The position numbers and the translations under genes were made by a program. From Arthrobacter sp. (GTDB taxonomy: Bacteria; Actinomycetota; Actinomycetes; Actinomycetales; Micrococcaceae), in assembly GCA_018260285.1 (NCBI GenBank), contig JAGLBH010000021.1:1-16771 (forward strand): a stretch of 16,771 bases of DNA, read 5' to 3'. Below the pieces are notes generated by a model. That model saw only the letters and a program-made list of their open reading frames with translations. It ran no database searches and had not been told where the DNA came from. Shown piece after piece: positions 8,346 through 16,771 of this stretch (its first letter is position 1; every line of letters starts with the position of its first letter).

Positions 8346-8396
8346 TGATTGCCTCTTTACCCGCAGCCTTGGCAGATTGACACTGGAGGACCGCCC

Positions 8397-10136
8397 ATGA
8401 CCGCCCACTCGCTGAGCACCCGCCGAGCCGAGCTGGAAGAGCAGGTGGCGCAGATCCTCGCGTCCTACTCAGAGGGTGCCCTCCAACGGACCCACGAGTC
8501 CCAGGCCATTGACTTCAAAGAGGAGGCCGGGCGCCGGGGACCCGGGGGCCTGATCGAACCGGGCAGCCCTGAAAACCCTGAGGCAGCCACCAAGCTCGCC
8601 GACGAAGTCGCCTGCTTCGCCAACTCCCCGGGCGGCGGGGCGCTCATCGTCGGCGTCGAGGACCGGACGGGGCGGGTGATCGGCACCGAGCTCGGGGTGG
8701 ACTGGCTTCGTCAGAGGATCAACGCGGCTGTCAGCGTGGCCCCGGACATCGTTGACACTGAGGTTGGCGGCCTCCGGGTGCTGGTCATCTACGTGGCAGA
8801 AAGCCGTGATCCCGTGCTGAATACGGGCGGACGTCTTCGATGGCGCGTGGGGGACTCCTGCAGGGAGGTCGACCGGTCAGAGTGGTGGCTCCACCGGGAC
8901 GCCCGCACAGAGCACGACCCCTTCGCCCGCCCCTCTCAGCGCGACATCTCAGACGTGCGGCGTGACGCCCTCCAGAAAATCAGGGACCTCCTCCCCTCTC
9001 ACGAGTTCAGCACGGATGAACAGATTCTGCGCTCCATCGGCGCCCTGCGCAGCGACAACAAGCTTTCCGAGGCAGCGGCGCTCCTTCTCACAGAGCCAGG
9101 CCGCACCTTCCTTGAGCTCACGATTCTCGACGTTCCGGGCGGGTCCGTCCTCAACGTCACCCGGCCACACGGCAGCCTGTCCCTCCTGGAGCAGATCTTC
9201 TTCCTTGAAGAGGCCCTCCGCCTCCGCAACTCTCAAGTCACCCTGGCACGCGGCCTCAGCCACAGCTCGGTCCGCCGGGTCCCAGAGGGTGCGGTTCGGG
9301 AGGCCATCCTCAACGGGGTGATTCACCGAGACTGGGGACGCCTCACCGAGCCCACGGAGCTGCGATGGGTCGACGCCGACTCCGCCTTCACGGTGCGCAG
9401 CCCAGGAGGATTTCCTCGCGGTGTGAACGCCTCCAACATTCTGAGCAATCGGGATGCCCGCTACCCCGCGCTGGCTGACCTCTTCCGCGCACTGACCCTC
9501 GTGGAAAAACAGGGCTTGGGGGTGGATCGGATGTACCAGTCGATGATCGTCCTCGGCCACCGGCCTCCCTCGATCACGGAGGCCGGAGGGCCGTTCGTTG
9601 AGTGCACCCTGACCGGAGGCGATCCTGTGGCCCCCGTGATGGACATGGTCCGGGCGATCACCCCCGCAGAGCGGCAGAAAGACGTGAACATTGCACTGAT
9701 TCTCTACCGTCTTCTCCATCGCCCCTTCCTCTCGCTGGCAGGGCTGAGTGAGCTCATGCAGAGCACCGAGGAGGCGGCGCGGGTGGCTTTGCGCGCTGCT
9801 CAGCAGACGAGCATCGACGGAACCCGTCTGATCCGGGCCTACAAGAATGCCTGGATTCTGGGGGAAGGCGGCCGTGCGCGCCTCGCCTCTCTCACTGAGG
9901 AGGATTCGGCTTTCCCTCTCATGGCCTTCGGGTCCACGGACAGCACTCATCTCGCGTCTGTCGCCCTGGAATGGGCCGCGTTCGATGGGGCCGTCACCAC
10001 AGGGGATCTCATGGAGCTCAGCGGCGTGTCCCGCGGGACCGCCAGACGAGCGCTTGAGGACTTAGCCGAGAGAGGCAAGCTGGAGCTCACAGGGGCGGGA
10101 CGAAGCACTCGGTATGAGGCGCGGAAGGTCGGCTAG
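8397..10136 (+). CDS. Schlafen/AlbA_2-type ATP-binding protein with C-terminal winged helix
   Basis: A 579-residue protein with three parts. The N-terminus (about 25-165) is an AlbA_2/Schlafen-like domain: ESQAIDFKEE (34-43), EVACFANSPGGGALIVGVED (70-89) and RWRVGDS (148-154). The middle (about 290-395) matches HATPase_c_4: REAILNGVIHRDW (301-313, N-box-like), RSPGGFP (334-340) and LVEKQGLGVDRMYQSM (368-383). Near the end TTGDLMELSGVSRGTARRAL (534-552) is a helix-turn-helix. Proteins of this build are called ATP-dependent helicases or transcriptional regulators without firm proof; AlbA_2 domains are related to Schlafen RNases. ATG 8397 has GGAGG 7 nt upstream; an in-frame upstream ATG at 8349 has none. 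It lies between DUF779 and abiEi and is preceded by two palindromes it may bind. Cellular role unknown. Confidence 0.85.
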   Translation: MTAHSLSTRRAELEEQVAQILASYSEGALQRTHESQAIDFKEEAGRRGPGGLIEPGSPENPEAATKLADEVACFANSPGGGALIVGVEDRTGRVIGTELGVDWLRQRINAAVSVAPDIVDTEVGGLRVLVIYVAESRDPVLNTGGRLRWRVGDSCREVDRSEWWLHRDARTEHDPFARPSQRDISDVRRDALQKIRDLLPSHEFSTDEQILRSIGALRSDNKLSEAAALLLTEPGRTFLELTILDVPGGSVLNVTRPHGSLSLLEQIFFLEEALRLRNSQVTLARGLSHSSVRRVPEGAVREAILNGVIHRDWGRLTEPTELRWVDADSAFTVRSPGGFPRGVNASNILSNRDARYPALADLFRALTLVEKQGLGVDRMYQSMIVLGHRPPSITEAGGPFVECTLTGGDPVAPVMDMVRAITPAERQKDVNIALILYRLLHRPFLSLAGLSELMQSTEEAARVALRAAQQTSIDGTRLIRAYKNAWILGEGGRARLASLTEEDSAFPLMAFGSTDSTHLASVALEWAAFDGAVTTGDLMELSGVSRGTARRALEDLAERGKLELTGAGRSTRYEARKVG

Positions 10137-10137
10137 C

Positions 10138-10188
10138 GTTCAGAATTTCGCGATGTTCATTTATAATGAACGCAGAGAAATAATGAAC
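10138..10188. promoter_or_regulatory. Four-half-site symmetric operator of abiE
   Basis: GTTCAGA (10138-10144), GTTCATT (10155-10161), AATGAAC (10165-10171) and AATGAAC (10182-10188) are arranged symmetrically about 10163. The inner pair forms the perfect palindrome GTTCATT-TAT-AATGAAC, and each outer half-site lies exactly 17 bp from its inner partner. In characterised AbiE systems AbiEi represses its own operon by binding inverted repeats in the promoter, so this is the expected AbiEi operator, with an unusually regular layout. Confidence 0.7.
10139..10167 (+). promoter_or_regulatory. abiE promoter
   Basis: TATAAT (10162-10167) is a consensus -10 lying inside the central palindrome. TTCAGA (10139-10144), 17 bp upstream, matches four of six -35 positions and overlaps the outer half-site. 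The repressor would therefore cover both elements. Transcription should begin near 10174, giving a leader of about 25 nt. Confidence 0.65.
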
Positions 10189-10198
10189 GGAGGATGCC

Positions 10199-11209
10199 AT
10201 GGATCCAGCACTTGCTGAGGCCGTCGTGAACCACTTGAGAGAGCATGGGCTTTCATTGCGAGGAGGCTGGGAACCGGATGGACTCGCCCCAGGAGTTCCA
10301 GGCCGGCTGGTCAGCCTCCAAGGCCATTCCGCTTCCATCTCTGTCCGACCTGTCTATGTTCCCCGGGGAGGGATCTCTCTCGTTTCCCCAGCCGACCTCC
10401 GAGCTCACAGAAACTCGCTGTTTCTTCTTGCTCCGTATGTCAACCCTCGCTCCGCAGCGATGCTCCGTGAGCTGGGGGTTCCTTTCCTCGACGCGGCAGG
10501 CAATGCCTTCATCACGTTCGAGGGCGTGTACATCGACATCCAAGGACGAAAGTCCCTGCCCGACAAAACGATGCCCGGGCGCCGAACCTCCCCCAGGGTC
10601 ACCTCCACGGCACCCTTAACTCTTTTCACCCCCAAACGCTCTCAGGTGATCTTCGCCCTGCTCACTTGGCCGGAGCTCGCTCAAGCAAGTATCCGGTCTC
10701 TTGCCCATCACTCTGGAACATCAGTGGGATTGGCTCAATCCACAGTGAACGCACTGAAAGAGGCCGAGCTCTTTCCCCGCCCAGAAGGGACTCCCAGCCA
10801 GTCGCCTCTTCGCGAGCTATGGCTCGCCTCGTACCCCTCAGGGCTGGGGAAGACGCTAGCCCTGGGCTCATTTCGGGGTGCTGTCCATGGTGGAGGATGG
10901 GATCCAGCGCGTACTCATATCGGTGGCGAATCAGCCGTGCCCACTTTGCTGAGCGACCCTGAGACCCTCACCCTCTACACGGACGAGGAGCCTCGAGCCC
11001 TGGCGAGACAGGGACGATGGACGGCCAGACCGGGTGAAGAACCGAACATCTTCATCCGCAGAAAATTCTGGCGGGATCCTGAAAACAAGGGCCAAGGCGG
11101 CGACTCACCAGCAAACACAGTCCCACCGCTGCTGATCGAGGCAGATCTCATAGCCTCTCAAGACCCCCGCCAGCTGGAAGCGGCACGCCTCCTGAAGAAC
11201 AGCGCATGA
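10199..11209 (+). CDS. abiEi: AbiEi-family antitoxin and autorepressor (type IV toxin-antitoxin)
   Basis: A 336-residue protein of the AbiEi antitoxin family (AbiEi_2-like). AbiEi proteins counter the AbiEii toxin and repress the operon. Family stretches: FLLAPYVNPRSAAMLRELG (75-93), FLDAAGNAFI (96-105), a predicted helix-turn-helix at about 162-190 (ASIRSLAHHSG ... AQSTVNAL), GGESAVPTLL (242-251) and PPLLIEADLIASQDPRQLEAA (309-329), the usual C-terminal signature. The DNA-binding element lies centrally rather than at the N-terminus as in AbiEi of streptococci. ATG 10199 has GGAGG 5 nt upstream (10189-10193); the near ATG 10194 is out of frame. The last codon and stop overlap the toxin start as ATGA, coupling the pair. 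Confidence 0.87.
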   Translation: MDPALAEAVVNHLREHGLSLRGGWEPDGLAPGVPGRLVSLQGHSASISVRPVYVPRGGISLVSPADLRAHRNSLFLLAPYVNPRSAAMLRELGVPFLDAAGNAFITFEGVYIDIQGRKSLPDKTMPGRRTSPRVTSTAPLTLFTPKRSQVIFALLTWPELAQASIRSLAHHSGTSVGLAQSTVNALKEAELFPRPEGTPSQSPLRELWLASYPSGLGKTLALGSFRGAVHGGGWDPARTHIGGESAVPTLLSDPETLTLYTDEEPRALARQGRWTARPGEEPNIFIRRKFWRDPENKGQGGDSPANTVPPLLIEADLIASQDPRQLEAARLLKNSA

Positions 11210-12087
11210 TTGACCTCACCCAGCTTGACGGGCAGGACCTGATCCTGGTGGATACGGTCGTCTCCGAGCTGATCCGCACCACAGGCTTTCCAGACAAGCA
11301 GATCATGCTGATCGGAGCGCAGGCCAGAAACATCCTGAGCAAGGCCCTCGGCCATACGATCACCATGCGCCGCACTCACGATGTGGACCTAGCACTGGCC
11401 TTGAGCGAATTTGAACCCTACGAAGATGCTCTCTCTGCCTTCAAATCACTGGGCAGTAACGGAATCTGCCGTTCCGTGGCCGGGATACCCGTGGATTTCA
11501 TTCCTTTCGGCGCCATTGAGGACCCGCCGGGAGAGGCCACCCCGCCGCTCAGGAAGAAGAACCTCAGCGTCTTCGGACACCAGTCAGTGTTCAATGCAGG
11601 CATCTCTCTGAAACTTCCCTCCGGGCACAGCATCACCCTCCCGACACCTGCGGGGTACACCGCCCTGAAAATGCGCGCGTGGATTGACCGCTCCTCCAAC
11701 GGTCAGTACAAAGACGCCCCGGACCTCGCTCTGGCATGTTTTTGGCAGAGCGCCCAGTGTGAGGATCCATTCATCGCGGAGAGCCTCTGGGACGACTCTC
11801 ATGGGCCCTCGCTCATGGAGATCTATGACTTCGATCCAGACAGCGCGAGCATCGCCCTTCTCTCACGAGATGTGGCTGCTCTCTTGAGCGAAGCGGAATA
11901 TCACGATCTCAAAGATCGATGGTCACGAACGAACACCGCTCATCTGATCAGGTACTTCACTCCGCCGCAGGGGATTCCTGAGCCTTCAGACCCACAGGCG
12001 AGATCTCGGTTTGTGGCAGCGCTTGGGAGTCTGCCTGCCCCAGTTGCCGGACCCCAAGTCCCGCGAACCGCTCGTAGAGCGCCGTGA
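11206..12087 (+). CDS. abiEii: AbiEii/AbiGii-family nucleotidyltransferase toxin
   Basis: A 293-residue toxin of the AbiEii/MenT-like DNA polymerase beta-fold nucleotidyltransferases; relatives halt growth by transferring nucleotides, in MenT cases to tRNA 3' ends. Motifs: LIGAQARNIL (35-44, the G-[GA]xxA region), RTHDVDLALAL (56-66, catalytic Asp pair DxD), VDFIPF (96-101), LKMRAWIDR (154-162) and QYKDAPDLALA (167-177, the KDxxDL region). ATG 11206 overlaps the antitoxin stop (ATGA). The conserved core ends at about HLIRYF (251). The last 43 residues are antisense to the end of hsdR and look non-conserved, so the native stop may have been lost at this junction. The protein appears intact and active, which fits retention of its antitoxin. 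Confidence 0.87.
   Translation: MIDLTQLDGQDLILVDTVVSELIRTTGFPDKQIMLIGAQARNILSKALGHTITMRRTHDVDLALALSEFEPYEDALSAFKSLGSNGICRSVAGIPVDFIPFGAIEDPPGEATPPLRKKNLSVFGHQSVFNAGISLKLPSGHSITLPTPAGYTALKMRAWIDRSSNGQYKDAPDLALACFWQSAQCEDPFIAESLWDDSHGPSLMEIYDFDPDSASIALLSRDVAALLSEAEYHDLKDRWSRTNTAHLIRYFTPPQGIPEPSDPQARSRFVAALGSLPAPVAGPQVPRTARRAP
11957..12087. other. Tail-to-tail coding overlap of abiEii and hsdR
   Basis: The final 131 bp of both genes, including both stops, occupy the same DNA on opposite strands. Transcription therefore converges with no room for an intrinsic terminator. Confidence 0.85.
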
Positions 12088-15046
12088 TCTTCTCGACGAC
12101 CCGCCGCTTCTTCTCCCCGTAGCCGTCTGAGGGCGAGAAGCGGGAGGCCCGCGGCATGATCTCCGTGATGGCGGTGCCGGCCGTCTGCACGCCGCCCTCT
12201 TCAAAGGCCCTCGCCAGGAAGGCCCGGGTCTCCTGGGGCTTGAGGCGCTCCTCGGCGATGAGGGCCTCGAGCTCCTTGGCCTGCTCTGCCGCCATGTGGC
12301 TCTGCCAGACGTCCGCCGTGGAGTCTGTGCTGACGGTCATCTCCTGCAGGAAGCCCCGAACCAGGTCGTCTCGCTCGCGCAGCGTGGGGCTCGCCGCCAC
12401 GTTCCGCATGATGCTGGCCGTCACCTCATGGTCCCCGCAGGCCACGGCGTCCCGGTTCCTGTCCACGAGCATGAGGATGTAGTCCACGTTGACTTCCACC
12501 TGCTTGATGAGCTCGATCTCGAAGACGAGGTCCTCGTCGATCGCCTCCTTCTCCCCCTCCGCGTTCGCCCGGAATTCGGAGTGCAGGTCCAGGTACACGC
12601 TCTTGTAGTCCTGCACGGCCCGCGGGGTGAGGAGCTCCTGCCCGGCGAAGTCGTCGAAGGACCTCAGGATGTTCTCCAGCTGGAGAATCTGGCCGAAGAG
12701 CTTGATGAACTCCTTCTGCGCCGCCTCGCCCTCAATCGGCTCCCCCGCGGGGAAGCGGGTCTGGAGCTCGTCCACTCGGTCTGAGTAGTCGGCGTAGTAC
12801 TCGCGGTAGGGCTTGAGGATGACGACGCCGCCGCCGTCCTTGTTCCCGAAGAGCTCTAGGGCCTCGTTCGTCGCATCCTCCAGATTCCGGAAGCTGACGA
12901 TGTTGCCGTACCGCTTGACCGAGTTGAGAATGCGGTTGGTCCGGGAGAACGCCTGGATGAGGCCGTGGGCCTTGAGGTTCTTGTCCACGAAGAGGGTGTT
13001 GAGCGTCGTCGCGTCGAAGCCCGTGAGGAACATGTTGACCACGATGACCAGGTCCAGCTCGCGGTTCTTGAGCCGCAGGGAGAGGTCTTTGTAGTAGTTC
13101 TGGAACCGGTCGGCGCTCGTGTCGAAGCTGGTGCCGAAGAGGTCGTTGTAGTCCTGGATGGCCTCGTCGAGGAAGGTGCGCGCATCGCCGGAGAGGGCGT
13201 TCGTGTCAAAGGCCTCGTCGTCGAGAATGCCGTCGCTGCTGGCCTCGTTGGCGCCGTAGGAGTAGATGAGGCCGATATTCAGCCGCTTCTCTGCGGGGAG
13301 CGCTGCCTGCTGGAGGGCGAAGGCGTTGTAGTAGCGGCGGGCGGCATCGATCGACTGGACCGCGAAGAGCGCGTTGAAGCCCCTGCTCGAATGGCCCTGG
13401 CGGAGGGTCTTCTGGTCGAAGTGCTCCAGGGTGTACTTCACGATGTTGGCGATCCGCTCGGGGTGGAGCAGGGCGGAGTCGGTGTCGATCGCGGGGACCT
13501 CGCCCGGCCGGATCTCGCCGGCCTGCATCGTGTTGATGTAGTCGATGCGGAAGGGCAGCACGTTCTTGTCCGTGATCGCGTCCACAATCGTGTACGTGTG
13601 GAGCTTCTCCCCGAACGCCTGCGCGGTGGTCTTGAGCTGCGGGTTGCCGCCGCCTGTGGAGTTCTCCGCGAAGATCGGCGTGCCGGTGAATCCGAAGAGG
13701 TTGTACCTCTTGAACGCCCTCGTGATGTCCGTGTGCATGTCCCCGAACTGGGAGCGGTGGCATTCGTCGAAGATGATGACGGCGTGCTTGCCGTAGATCT
13801 CGTGGCCCTTGTTGGCCTTGATGAAGGTGGAGAGCTTCTGGATCGTGGTGATGATGATCCGGGCGGCCGGGTCTTCGAGCTGGCTCTTGAGCACGGCGGT
13901 GGAGGTGTTGGAGTTCGCGGCGCCCCTCTGGAACCGGTCATACTCCTTCATCGTCTGGTAATCGAGGTCTTTGCGGTCGACGACGAAGAGCACCTTGTCC
14001 ACGCTCTCCAGCGTGCTGGCGAGCTGCGCGGTCTTGAAGCTCGTAAGCGTTTTGCCGGAGCCGGTGGTGTGCCACACATACCCGCCGGCCTCAACCGTGC
14101 CGAGCTTCTTGTAATTCGTGGAGATCTCGATGCGCTGCAGAATGCGCTCGGTGGCCACGATTTGGTAGGGCCGCATCACGAGCAGCATGTTGTCTGAGGT
14201 GAGCACGCAGTAACGGGTGAGGATGTTCAGGAGCGCGTGCTTGGCGAAGAACGTCTTGGCGAAATACCGCAGGTCCTGGATGGGCTTGTTGTTCGCGTCC
14301 GCCCACCAGGAGGTGAATTCGTAGCTGTTGGACGTCTTCTTGCGGTTGCGGGGCCCCTCCTCAGCTTCTTTGATGTGCTGGTTCCGCGTGGTGTTGGAGT
14401 AGTACTTGGTCTGAGTCCCGTTGGAGATGACGAAGAGCTGCACGTACTGGAACAGGCCGGAGTCCGCCCAGAAGCTGTCCCGCTGGTAGCGGTTGATCTG
14501 GTTGAAAGCCTCCCGAATGTTCACGCCGCGGCGCTTGAGCTCCACGTGGACAAGGGGCAGCCCGTTGACGAGAATCGTCACGTCATACCGGTTGGCGTAG
14601 GTCCCCTCGGCTTCGTACTGGTTGATGACCTGAAGGCGGTTGTTGTGAATGTCCGCCTTGTCGAGGAGCTGAATGTTCTTGGTGGTCCCGTCGTCCCGCT
14701 TGAGCAGCTGGACGTGGTCCTCCTGAATGCGGAGGGTCTTCTCTTGAATGCCTTCGTTGGCCCCGGCGATGCACGTGGTGAAGAACCGCGCCCATTCCTC
14801 GTCCGAGAACACGACGTCGTTGAGCAGCTCCAGCTGCCGGCGCAGGTTGGGAATGAGGTCCGCTTCATTGCGGATCGTGAGGCGCTCGTAGGCCTGCTCG
14901 CCCAGAATGCGGATCAGCTCACGCTCGAGGTCCGCCTCGGACTGGTAGGCCGTCTCCGCGCTGCCGTCAGGGATGAATTCGGCGACGACGGTGCTGAGGG
15001 GTGACTCGGCGACGGGCGCATACGCGCGTGGCTGATCCTTGCTCAT
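11957..15046 (-). CDS. hsdR: Type I restriction endonuclease subunit R (HsdR)
   Basis: A 1029-residue motor/nuclease subunit of the type I complex; it cleaves unmodified DNA after ATP-driven translocation. The nuclease core matches the EcoR124I type: RYDVTI with Asp155 and VELKRR with Glu169 and Lys171. Helicase motifs follow: HTTGSGKT (326-333, Walker A), FDECH (426-430, motif II), GFTGTP (452-457), FLTGFDATTLNTL and QAFSRTNRI (motif VI). No frameshift is visible in this length. ATG 15046 overlaps the hsdS stop by ATGA. The C-terminus beyond LYERFAGLG (about 31 residues) is non-core and is antisense to the end of abiEii. A full HsdM-S-R set predicts active restriction. Confidence 0.95.
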   Translation of the reverse strand: MSKDQPRAYAPVAESPLSTVVAEFIPDGSAETAYQSEADLERELIRILGEQAYERLTIRNEADLIPNLRRQLELLNDVVFSDEEWARFFTTCIAGANEGIQEKTLRIQEDHVQLLKRDDGTTKNIQLLDKADIHNNRLQVINQYEAEGTYANRYDVTILVNGLPLVHVELKRRGVNIREAFNQINRYQRDSFWADSGLFQYVQLFVISNGTQTKYYSNTTRNQHIKEAEEGPRNRKKTSNSYEFTSWWADANNKPIQDLRYFAKTFFAKHALLNILTRYCVLTSDNMLLVMRPYQIVATERILQRIEISTNYKKLGTVEAGGYVWHTTGSGKTLTSFKTAQLASTLESVDKVLFVVDRKDLDYQTMKEYDRFQRGAANSNTSTAVLKSQLEDPAARIIITTIQKLSTFIKANKGHEIYGKHAVIIFDECHRSQFGDMHTDITRAFKRYNLFGFTGTPIFAENSTGGGNPQLKTTAQAFGEKLHTYTIVDAITDKNVLPFRIDYINTMQAGEIRPGEVPAIDTDSALLHPERIANIVKYTLEHFDQKTLRQGHSSRGFNALFAVQSIDAARRYYNAFALQQAALPAEKRLNIGLIYSYGANEASSDGILDDEAFDTNALSGDARTFLDEAIQDYNDLFGTSFDTSADRFQNYYKDLSLRLKNRELDLVIVVNMFLTGFDATTLNTLFVDKNLKAHGLIQAFSRTNRILNSVKRYGNIVSFRNLEDATNEALELFGNKDGGGVVILKPYREYYADYSDRVDELQTRFPAGEPIEGEAAQKEFIKLFGQILQLENILRSFDDFAGQELLTPRAVQDYKSVYLDLHSEFRANAEGEKEAIDEDLVFEIELIKQVEVNVDYILMLVDRNRDAVACGDHEVTASIMRNVAASPTLRERDDLVRGFLQEMTVSTDSTADVWQSHMAAEQAKELEALIAEERLKPQETRAFLARAFEEGGVQTAGTAITEIMPRASRFSPSDGYGEKKRRVVEKITALYERFAGLGVRQLGQADSQALPQTEISPVGLKAQESPAAE

Positions 15047-16185
15047 GCGGAAAGCTCCTTAAAAGTGAGCAGCTTGTCACGGTAGTACTCGTATTGCTTG
15101 CGACGGGCGGCGAGCTCGGCAGACAGGCCGACACTGAGGTCATTGACGAGGGCGTCGAATTTATCAAGCTGAGAAGCGATTCGTAGTTGGTCTTCAAGTG
15201 GCAACAATGGAAACTTCAAACCGGTGACTTGACCCTTACTCAGATGGGTCTGGTCCGACCCATTGTCGTATCGAATGAGATCTGGAGATCGATCCAAGTA
15301 ATGGAACATGAATCGCGAATTCACTTGTCTTTCATTCTTGACTCGCAATCTAGCCACACGCTGATTTATTGCGTATGCATCACTTCGATCCACATAAAAT
15401 GTTCGAGCCAGCGCGCGACCATTCGGGAGATCACTAAGAACAAGCGCAACATCCCCTTCATTCGCCCCGGTCTGCACATCTTCGGAGCGAACGAATCGAT
15501 TCGCTTCACCATTGCGAGAGATAAATCTTGCTGTCACCATAGGAATATCGCCCTCAGGATCGGAATAACGCTCATGTGCGCGCCCATTCACATAGTCCGC
15601 AATATCACCCAAGCTGACCCACTCAATTTCTCTACCAAAAGAGAGGACAGATCTCCGATATTCGTTCGACTGGCGCTTCCTGAGCCCCAGCTCTGCTGCC
15701 AGTTCCGTTTCCAGCTCCGATTCCAGCTGAGAGAAATTATCTAATATTAGTACAATTTCACACTGGATTTCCAATGGAGGCACTGGCAATTTCAAACGAT
15801 TCAGAACAGACTGTGTCTGACTGGGAACTCCACCCGCCTGATTCATCTCCCCGAGGCGCATTGTTTTTAACTGATGATATAGAAACTTTGGAATCATCTG
15901 CGATGAATCGATTTCTGTTCGAAAAATTGTGTCAACTACCCAGAAGGGTCCTTCTGTATAGAAAACATTCCCCAAGGAACCTTTTCTGGGGATAAGCACC
16001 GACGGCCCCTCAGCATCAGCCTGGTCGACATAACGCATAATTCCGCCGCTACCATATACAGGAATCTCGCCGTCACCAAGTTTCTTATGGTCTCTACCGT
16101 TTTTAATTTTGGCAATGTCACCCAAGGGTTTGAATGGCACCCCATCCGGACACAGCTCGGCAATCAGGTCGTCGATCCGGCTCAT
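15043..16185 (-). CDS. hsdS: Type I restriction-modification specificity subunit (HsdS)
   Basis: A 380-residue DNA-recognition subunit with two target-recognition domains: TRD1 about 1-135 (opening LIAELCPDGVPFKPLGDI) and TRD2 about 187-325 (opening WVSLGDIADYVNGR). Each is followed by a conserved helix: PVPPLEIQCEIVLILDNF (134-151) and PLLPLEDQLRIASQLDKF (326-343), then coiled coils ending NEYRRSVLSF and YEYYRDKLLTF. The first coiled coil contains the tetrapeptide repeats LESE, LETE, LAAE (154-165). Both TRDs are visibly AT-richer and use more A/T-ending codons than hsdM or hsdR, as expected of TRDs exchanged between strains. Start ATG 16185 and stop 15043 overlap hsdM and hsdR as ATGA. The recognised sequence cannot be deduced. 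Confidence 0.93.
   Translation of the reverse strand: MSRIDDLIAELCPDGVPFKPLGDIAKIKNGRDHKKLGDGEIPVYGSGGIMRYVDQADAEGPSVLIPRKGSLGNVFYTEGPFWVVDTIFRTEIDSSQMIPKFLYHQLKTMRLGEMNQAGGVPSQTQSVLNRLKLPVPPLEIQCEIVLILDNFSQLESELETELAAELGLRKRQSNEYRRSVLSFGREIEWVSLGDIADYVNGRAHERYSDPEGDIPMVTARFISRNGEANRFVRSEDVQTGANEGDVALVLSDLPNGRALARTFYVDRSDAYAINQRVARLRVKNERQVNSRFMFHYLDRSPDLIRYDNGSDQTHLSKGQVTGLKFPLLPLEDQLRIASQLDKFDALVNDLSVGLSAELAARRKQYEYYRDKLLTFKELSA
15691..15726 (-). repeat. Three 12-bp tandem units in hsdS (spacer-length repeat)
   Basis: On the coding strand the units are CTGGAATCGGAG, CTGGAAACGGAA and CTGGCAGCAGAG, encoding LESE, LETE and LAAE in the central coiled coil. In EcoR124I versus EcoR124II two or three copies of a TAEL tetrapeptide at the equivalent place set the length of the non-specific spacer in the recognised DNA. 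Confidence 0.75.
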
Positions 16186-16771
16186 TTCTGCCCCTCGAGG
16201 TCGGCCACGATAGCGTCGATCGCGGTGCGCAGCTCGGCCTGCCGGGCCACGATCTGGGCGATCTCGGCATTGAGGGCCTCGATATCCACGACCTCGCGTG
16301 TGTCCTCCTGCTGCACATAGCTGGAGACCGCAATGTTGTAGTCGTTCGCAGCGATGTCCGCGTTGGAGACCATTGCGGCCACATGCTCCACGTCCTCGCG
16401 GGCGGTGAACCGCTCGAGGATGTGGTCCTGGTTCGCAGGGAGCAGCTTGTTCTTGTTGCCCACGCGGGTGAATTCGGCTGACGCATCGATGAAGAGCACC
16501 GAATTATCCGACTTGGACTTCTTGAGAACGATGATGCACGTGGCAATCGTCGTCCCGAAGAACATGTCTCCGGGAAGCTGGATCACGGCGTCGACATAAT
16601 TGTTGTCCACCAGATACTTGCGGATCTTGCGCTCCGCTCCCCCGCGATAGAGGACCCCCGGGAACTCGACGATCGCCGCGGTGCCGTTGACGGCCAGCCA
16701 CGACAGGATGTGCATCGTGAAGGCGAGGTCCGCCTTGGACTTCGGGGCCAGGACACCCGCTGGGGAGAAGC
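16182..16771 (-). CDS. hsdM: Type I restriction-modification methyltransferase subunit (HsdM), C-terminal part
   Basis: About 196 C-terminal residues of the N6-adenine methyltransferase subunit; the gene continues beyond the right edge, which hides the SAM-binding and NPPY motifs. The visible part begins SPAGVLAPKSKADLAFTMH and continues through GTAAIVEFPGVLYRGGAERKIR, then VIQLPGDMFFGTTIATCII and LFIDAS, all typical of HsdM after the catalytic motif. It ends with a helical C-terminus (IEALNAEIAQIVARQAELRTAIDAI), which contacts HsdS. The frame is open to the window edge, so the internal Met at 16715 is not the start. Stop overlaps the hsdS start (ATGA), giving the order M-S-R on one message. 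Confidence 0.95.
   Translation of the reverse strand, partial: FSPAGVLAPKSKADLAFTMHILSWLAVNGTAAIVEFPGVLYRGGAERKIRKYLVDNNYVDAVIQLPGDMFFGTTIATCIIVLKKSKSDNSVLFIDASAEFTRVGNKNKLLPANQDHILERFTAREDVEHVAAMVSNADIAANDYNIAVSSYVQQEDTREVVDIEALNAEIAQIVARQAELRTAIDAIVADLEGQK

What the first reader, a model, noticed from the sequence alone, without database searches (positions are those of the whole stretch)
10138..10188. Four half-sites in strict symmetry around a TATAAT box
GTTCA-type half-sites at 10138, 10155, 10165 and 10182 are mirror-arranged about 10163, each pair 17 bp apart, with the -10 in the central palindrome and the -35 under the outer site. Such a layout allows graded, cooperative repression by a dimeric or tetrameric AbiEi, and differs from the two-inverted-repeat pattern recalled for streptococcal AbiE.
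Basis: partly seen in the sequence, partly recalled or inferred. Interest (0 to 1): 0.7.

Follow-up and report, generated by a model that had tools for sequence, protein, structure and literature searches.

The report
Four-part DNA switch controlling abortive-infection genes
A short, mirror-symmetric stretch of DNA wraps the promoter of a bacterial toxin-antitoxin gene pair; the same four-part layout recurs in front of related gene pairs in many bacteria, so it is very probably the antitoxin's own off-switch, and matching copies without the genes unexpectedly turn up in phage DNA.

Summary
It directly precedes an AbiEi_2 (PF09952) antitoxin gene and a MenT/AbiEii-like nucleotidyltransferase gene. 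The 51-bp layout GTTCA-N12-GTTCA-N7-TGAAC-N12-TGAAC is conserved: of 13 sites with at most 1 mismatch in 197 genomes of the family, 12 precede an AbiEi_2 gene. More distant AbiEi_2 genes often keep a four-part mirror with other letters, changed together in all four copies. Best reading: the AbiEi autorepression operator, one AbiEi winged helix per half-site. The gross plan equals the S. agalactiae abiE operator (two 23-25-bp arms, 3-bp gap, promoter inside); the repeat inside each arm is the difference. Binding, cooperativity and graded repression are untested. Unexplained: 119 of 120 viral stretches and 37 of 119 bacterial loci with the exact pattern (both lists capped) have no AbiEi_2 gene beside them, yet match abiE operators at unspecified positions too (r 0.85 and 0.81).

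The parts
10138..10142 (+). outer left half-site GTTCA
   Evidence: sequence; conserved layout
10155..10159 (+). inner left half-site GTTCA
   Evidence: sequence; conserved layout
10167..10171 (-). inner right half-site (TGAAC on +)
   Evidence: sequence; conserved layout
10184..10188 (-). outer right half-site (TGAAC on +)
   Evidence: sequence; conserved layout
10137..10189 (.). operator as two mirrored arms 10137-10161 and 10165-10189 with a 3-nt gap
   Evidence: the repeat finder I1, 25-nt arms, 76% complementary
10139..10144 (+). -35 TTCAGA inside the outer left half-site
   Evidence: promoter scan, spacer 17
10162..10167 (+). -10 TATAAT; its last T is the first base of the inner right half-site
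   Evidence: promoter scan; register kept in relatives
10189..10194 (+). ribosome-binding-like GGAGGA
   Evidence: sequence
10199..11209 (+). antitoxin and autorepressor AbiEi, Pfam AbiEi_2, 336 aa
   Evidence: 67.1 bits against cut-off 21; relatives named AbiEi family antitoxin by NCBI
10616..10834 (+). winged helix of AbiEi, residues about 140-212
11206..12087 (+). nucleotidyltransferase toxin candidate, 293 aa, start overlaps the abiEi stop by 4 nt

Best explanation
The 51-bp element is the autorepression operator of an AbiE-like toxin-antitoxin operon. AbiEi, whose model has one winged helix per chain, reads the same 5-6-bp half-site four times, two copies in each of two mirror-image arms. 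The promoter is woven into the site: the outer left half-site holds the -35 and the -10 ends in the first base of the inner right half-site, so bound AbiEi excludes RNA polymerase and keeps antitoxin and toxin low. Shown: layout, conservation, linkage to AbiEi_2 genes, half-site letters changing together, promoter register. Inferred: that AbiEi is the binder, four reading heads (most simply four chains), repression. Not shown: cooperativity or a graded response.
For: 11 of 13 family homologues found by protein similarity (own included) have 19-20 of 20 half-site letters just upstream. By pattern, 13 sites with 0-1 mismatch in 197 genomes, 12 followed by an AbiEi_2-like ORF; the reversed control pattern hit in 3 of the 197 genomes, the real one in 25 at up to 3 mismatches. 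6 of 7 class relatives have 19-20 of 20; the seventh, L050, has GGTCA in all four places. A scan free in letters and spacing found the mirror at 22-24 of 24 with 0 of 20 resamples equal in 34 of 45 uncut loci. Toxin-like ORF downstream in 35 of 46 similarity-found and 62 of 68 pattern-found loci. The upstream neighbour is not conserved. 16 of 17 actinobacterial operators have TAnnnT ending in the T of a TGAAC half-site.
Against: No binding data. In 11 of 45 uncut loci the scan did not reach the threshold; L047 and L050 have the site by other counts, L015 has lost one base, L061, L062, L065 and L066 score 21, and L017, L063, L075 and L078 show none. The same element stands without an AbiEi_2 gene in 119 of 120 viral stretches and 37 of 119 bacterial loci, so something else might read it. 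Recognition-helix residues do vary with half-site letters, but so does the whole protein, so this is no proof of contact.
Confidence: 0.75

Rival explanations
1. Two-unit operator: as in S. agalactiae, one AbiEi chain covers each arm, and inner and outer half-sites are two contacts of one chain, so only two chains bind.
For: Arm length and 3-bp gap equal the streptococcal operator, where two shifts were seen and replacing one repeat left one (PMC3985639 section 27).
Against: Inner and outer half-sites carry the same letters and change together, while the model has only one winged helix per chain.
Confidence: 0.3
2. The site belongs to another, more widespread DNA-binding protein that uses abiE promoters as one of its targets.
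For: 119 of 120 viral stretches and 37 of 119 bacterial loci with the exact pattern lack an adjoining AbiEi_2 gene; 31 of 38 such genomes searched have no PF09952 at all; unspecified positions match those of abiE operators, r 0.85 and 0.81.
Against: Within 197 family genomes 12 of 13 close matches are at AbiEi_2 genes; half-site letters differ between AbiEi_2 subfamilies while the four-part mirror stays; no shared neighbour gene was found for the viral copies.
Confidence: 0.15
3. The upstream DIP2311-like AlbA_2 regulator (8349-10136), which has its own helix-turn-helix, binds the site.
For: It ends two bases before the site and has a C-terminal regulator domain.
Against: No relative of it was found in any of the other AbiEi_2 loci tested, which reach about 1.5 kb (genome-search loci) or more upstream where the contig allows, though the site is there.
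Confidence: 0.03
4. Chance symmetry.
For: Plain palindrome content is matched once elsewhere in the window.
Against: No exact four-copy mirror in 12 resampled windows with 80 spacings allowed; conservation.
Confidence: 0.01

Closest known systems
S. agalactiae abiE operator (Dy et al. 2014, PMC3985639; passages and section 27 seen)
   Same: Two inverted arms (23 bp there, 25 nt here) 3 bp apart; -35 in the left arm; -10 in the middle (my placement of their TAAAAT on the printed letters); 17-bp spacer; antitoxin gene then toxin gene.
   Different: There each arm has no internal repeat at 17-18 bp (my reading of the printed letters); letters TGTTGC against GTTCA; there the winged helix is N-terminal.
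M. tuberculosis Rv2827c operator (Beck et al. 2020, PMC7319586; abstract and sections 14, 15, 18 seen)
   Same: Antitoxin binds four repeats that overlap the promoter.
   Different: Four separate 23-bp repeats within positions -1 to -131, gaps 13 and 4 bp, unequal affinities, negative cooperativity; here four 5-bp half-sites in 51 bp.
BrxR R-box (PMC9122601; passages seen)
   Same: Autorepressor of defence genes acting on an inverted repeat near a -10 box.
   Different: One pair of 11-bp repeats with a 5-bp spacer; BrxR is a WYL-domain protein; the text holds no GTTCA or TGAAC string.

Membership tests
AbiEi_2 (PF09952) antitoxin family | Pfam profile match above the curated cut-off | tested here: met
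   67.1 bits against 21
AbiE-type toxin-antitoxin operon | antitoxin gene directly followed by a nucleotidyltransferase toxin gene | tested here: met
   10199-11209 then 11206-12087; downstream toxin-like ORF also in 35 of 46 similarity-found loci
AbiE-type toxin-antitoxin operon | toxin of the AbiEii family PF08843 (DUF1814) | tested here: inconclusive
   own protein has only a sub-cut-off match to PF12281; 4 of the 20 listed proteins (own included) carry PF08843; fold like MenT1 and MenT3
AbiE-type toxin-antitoxin operon | inverted repeats overlapping the promoter | tested here: met
AbiE-type toxin-antitoxin operon | antitoxin binds the repeats and represses; toxin neutralised without a complex (type IV) | not testable with these tools
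   needs purified proteins and expression tests
S. agalactiae-type AbiEi (N-terminal winged helix, C-terminal antitoxin domain) | DNA-binding domain at the N-terminus | tested here: not met
   the model has an N-domain of about 120 residues before the winged helix; hence filed under AbiEi_2, working like AbiE

The most novel reading that the evidence does not exclude
Phages and some chromosomes carry free-standing copies of AbiEi_2 operators, so AbiEi has targets in trans. Replicating phage copies could draw AbiEi off its own promoter or off its antitoxin duty, making the operon respond to infection; or the phage uses the copy to exploit or disarm AbiEi. AbiE would then have a DNA-borne link to phage infection.
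Probability: 0.22. Interest if true: 0.85.

Novelty: new variant of a known kind. Interest (0 to 1): 0.6.

Why it matters
It gives a searchable 20-letter operator signature for AbiEi_2 toxin-antitoxin loci across bacteria, and a concrete model (four equal half-sites, promoter locked to their spacing) of how this branch of antitoxins regulates itself. If the gene-less phage copies prove to be AbiEi targets, what links AbiE to phage infection becomes directly testable.

Tried and rejected
Upstream DIP2311-like gene as owner of the site: rejected, not conserved. Recognition helix against half-site letters as proof of contact: not usable, because the operator classes follow protein subfamilies as a whole. 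The search for related loci on genome contigs with the single protein: 166 pattern matches, none confirmed. PDB sequence search: no credible relative of either protein. Foldseek against PDB: no match at E <= 0.001 for either model. VIA-align for the AbiEi model covered mainly the winged helix, so folds of the N- and C-domains stay untested; AbiEi and Rv2827c did not appear among its 50 rows, which shows nothing. PADLOC and NCBIfam returned no model for the two proteins.

Gene-less copies. Viral: no shared neighbour gene among 120; 25 of 120 lie inside an ORF of at least 60 aa, 95 of 120 between ORFs; 14 of 120 have a tRNA within 500 bases; one ATPase/terminase-like cluster occurs in 20 of 120 loci. 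The AbiEi_2 HMM was run on 80 of the 120 viral loci; for all 120 only ORFs starting near the site were clustered by BLASTP. Controls: reversed letters 0; N13 spacers 11 stretches, of which two (L326, L328) do have AbiEi_2 genes. Other operator classes in viral contigs: GTTTCC 3, GGTCA 4 (three look like local repeats), TTTCA 6. Two huge-phage records about 70-72% identical over the gene next to one viral copy (L223) lack the pattern at up to 3 mismatches; so does a Riemerella phage only weakly related to L230. Bacterial: some copies stand near Fic, HipB-like, HsdR-like or DUF6088-like ORFs; these names are by eye, not tested, and no pattern was established. Two further nucleotide searches gave no match.

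Rows dropped or not tested: two of 32 places (G776:C20, G760:C11) gave no locus and were not examined; four of 49 loci were set aside as cut off or fragments (L057, L060, L071, L074); one search took 38 of the 39 bacterial loci without an HMM hit (L187, cut by its edge, left out); one search left out L272.

Literature: searches listed no paper on AbiEi_2 operators or on phage-borne AbiE operators (listings only, apart from the papers named). Hampton et al. 2018 (J Mol Biol) was not opened; it was seen only as cited in other papers. Dy 2014 says that similar inverted repeats occur upstream of other abiE loci; its supplement was not seen. In PMC8436566 (passages) loss of AbiEi changed 116 genes, no binding sites were given.

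Full report
WHAT IS THERE. Between the stop of an AlbA_2/DIP2311-like gene (8349-10136) and the ATG at 10199 lie 62 bases, 51 of which form a mirror: GTTCA 10138-10142, GTTCA 10155-10159, TGAAC 10167-10171, TGAAC 10184-10188, centre 10163. TATAAT (10162-10167) spans the centre; TTCAGA (10139-10144) lies 17 bases before it; GGAGGA (10189-10194) follows at once. No other place in the window scores above 17 of 20 in this layout. With 80 spacings allowed one other exact case exists (C-rich, at 2099), and none arose in 12 resampled windows.

CONSERVATION IN THE FAMILY. A protein search of 197 genomes found 13 with the gene, the window's own included. 11 of 13 have 19 or 20 of 20 half-site letters just upstream; L015 has one base fewer between the two left half-sites, and L017 (a partial match) has no site. 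The reverse search, by pattern with up to 3 mismatches in the same 197 genomes, matched in 25 genomes against 3 for the reversed control. It gave 13 places with 0-1 mismatch; 12 are followed by an AbiEi_2-like ORF, one of them broken (L038), and one (L029) is not.

CONSERVATION BEYOND. In the class 8 of 394 genomes, own included, have the gene. Of the 7 others 6 show 19-20 of 20 letters; L050 shows GGTCA in all four places. In the phylum 29 of 396 genomes, own included, have PF09952. A scan that presumes neither letters nor spacing, on 49 loci of which 45 are not cut off, found the four-part mirror at 22-24 of 24 with 0 of 20 resamples equal in 34 of 45. Half-site classes by consensus: GTTCA (spacing 17, inner palindrome 17 bp); GTTTCC and TTTTCC (18; 18 bp); GTTTCA-like (18; 20-21 bp); TGTTGC-like (18; 20 bp, two loci, less exact). 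Inner and outer copies share their consensus. The four-fold change of letters is the strongest evidence that one kind of reading head uses all four, and the linkage says that it belongs to the AbiEi_2 protein. Eleven of 45 fell short; see evidence against.

PROMOTER REGISTER. Among 17 actinobacterial GTTCA operators 10 have TA at -10 only at the centre, 5 only one 17-bp step to the right, 1 (L008) at both and 1 (L013) at neither. In the five right-hand cases ATG or GTG follows 2 bases after the operator, so transcripts should be leaderless (inference). In these 16 the -10 ends in the T of a TGAAC half-site, with TTCAnn 17 bases upstream: operator and promoter are one object.

MECHANISM. Inferred: AbiEi binds the four half-sites and shuts out RNA polymerase. 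One winged helix per chain and four equal half-sites suggest four chains. Half-sites on one arm are 17 bp (1.6 turns) apart, the inner pair 12 bp, so neighbours on an arm face nearly opposite sides. Whether binding is cooperative, graded or changed by the toxin is not shown.

COMPARISON. The printed S. agalactiae operator has 23-bp arms 3 bp apart and -35 TTGCTT, -10 TAAAAT separated by 17 bp; its start site lies 26 bp before the ATG (PMC3985639, passages and section 27). On the printed letters its -35 falls in the left arm and its -10 at the centre, as in the window; the internal repeat is what differs. Rv2827c has four 23-bp repeats within -1 to -131 and negative cooperativity (PMC7319586).

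GENE-LESS COPIES. 76 of 119 have an AbiEi_2 ORF opening within 150 bases of the site, 80 of 119 an HMM hit in the locus; L081 is an 81st and L187 looks like another by eye, which leaves 37. Of 38 loci searched genome-wide (the 37 and L081) 7 genomes have PF09952. In G970 the extra site has the same centre and the same extended outer letters as the abiE operator; in G975 and G961 the centres are alike, less so in G950. A scan of viral contigs stopped at its limit with 120 stretches; 1 of 120 (L272) adjoins an AbiEi_2 gene, and 1 of 39 long viral records searched whole has the protein. Reversed letters gave 0 stretches and a spacer one base longer 11. At 25 positions not fixed by the pattern, log-odds of 119 viral sites and 91 abiE-linked sites correlate at 0.85, 37 other bacterial sites and abiE-linked ones at 0.81; 0 of 2000 column permutations reached either. 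So these look like the same element. What they do is unknown. In the one huge-phage lineage checked, two relatives lack it.

LIMITS. No binding data. Both collection scans were capped, so densities cannot be compared and phage hosts are unknown. Loci found by the exact pattern say nothing about how often AbiEi_2 genes have it; only the similarity-found set does. Viral contigs are predictions and may be fragments.

Noticed in passing
L199-L318 (viral contigs): 120 viral stretches hold the exact 51-bp pattern; 119 have no AbiEi_2 gene beside it and no shared neighbour was found, yet unspecified positions match abiE operators.
   Followed up: partly
G970, G975, G961, G950 (loci L154, L173, L124, L097): Genomes with an AbiEi_2 gene and one or more further copies of the element elsewhere; in G970 the copies share centre and extended outer letters: possible second or trans sites.
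   Followed up: partly
L029:1501-1551: Orphan one-mismatch site between a transporter-like and a permease-like gene, with no AbiEi_2 ORF in the locus: relic or trans site.
   Followed up: no
L038:1501-1551 and 1678 onward: Perfect operator in front of an AbiEi_2 gene that appears broken (two overlapping ORF pieces).
   Followed up: no
L046-L049 and L014: The -10 sits one 17-bp step further right, with the start codon 2 bases after the operator: probably leaderless transcripts.
   Followed up: partly
L013, L014: An extra GTTCA makes two abutting 17-bp palindromes within the operator.
   Followed up: no
L326, L328 (viral contigs): Operators with 13-base instead of 12-base spacers in contigs with an AbiEi_2 gene: spacing can vary by one.
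   Followed up: no
window 11957-16715, - strand: Type I restriction genes hsdR, hsdS and the end of hsdM converge on the toxin gene, whose 3' end overlaps the hsdR ORF: a small defence cluster.
   Followed up: no
window 8349-10136, + strand: AlbA_2 / DIP2311-like regulator ends 2 bases before the operator; not conserved beside other AbiEi_2 genes.
   Followed up: partly
window about 1850-2290: ORF translations show repeated peptides, which suggests an array of repeats between genes; not examined.
   Followed up: no
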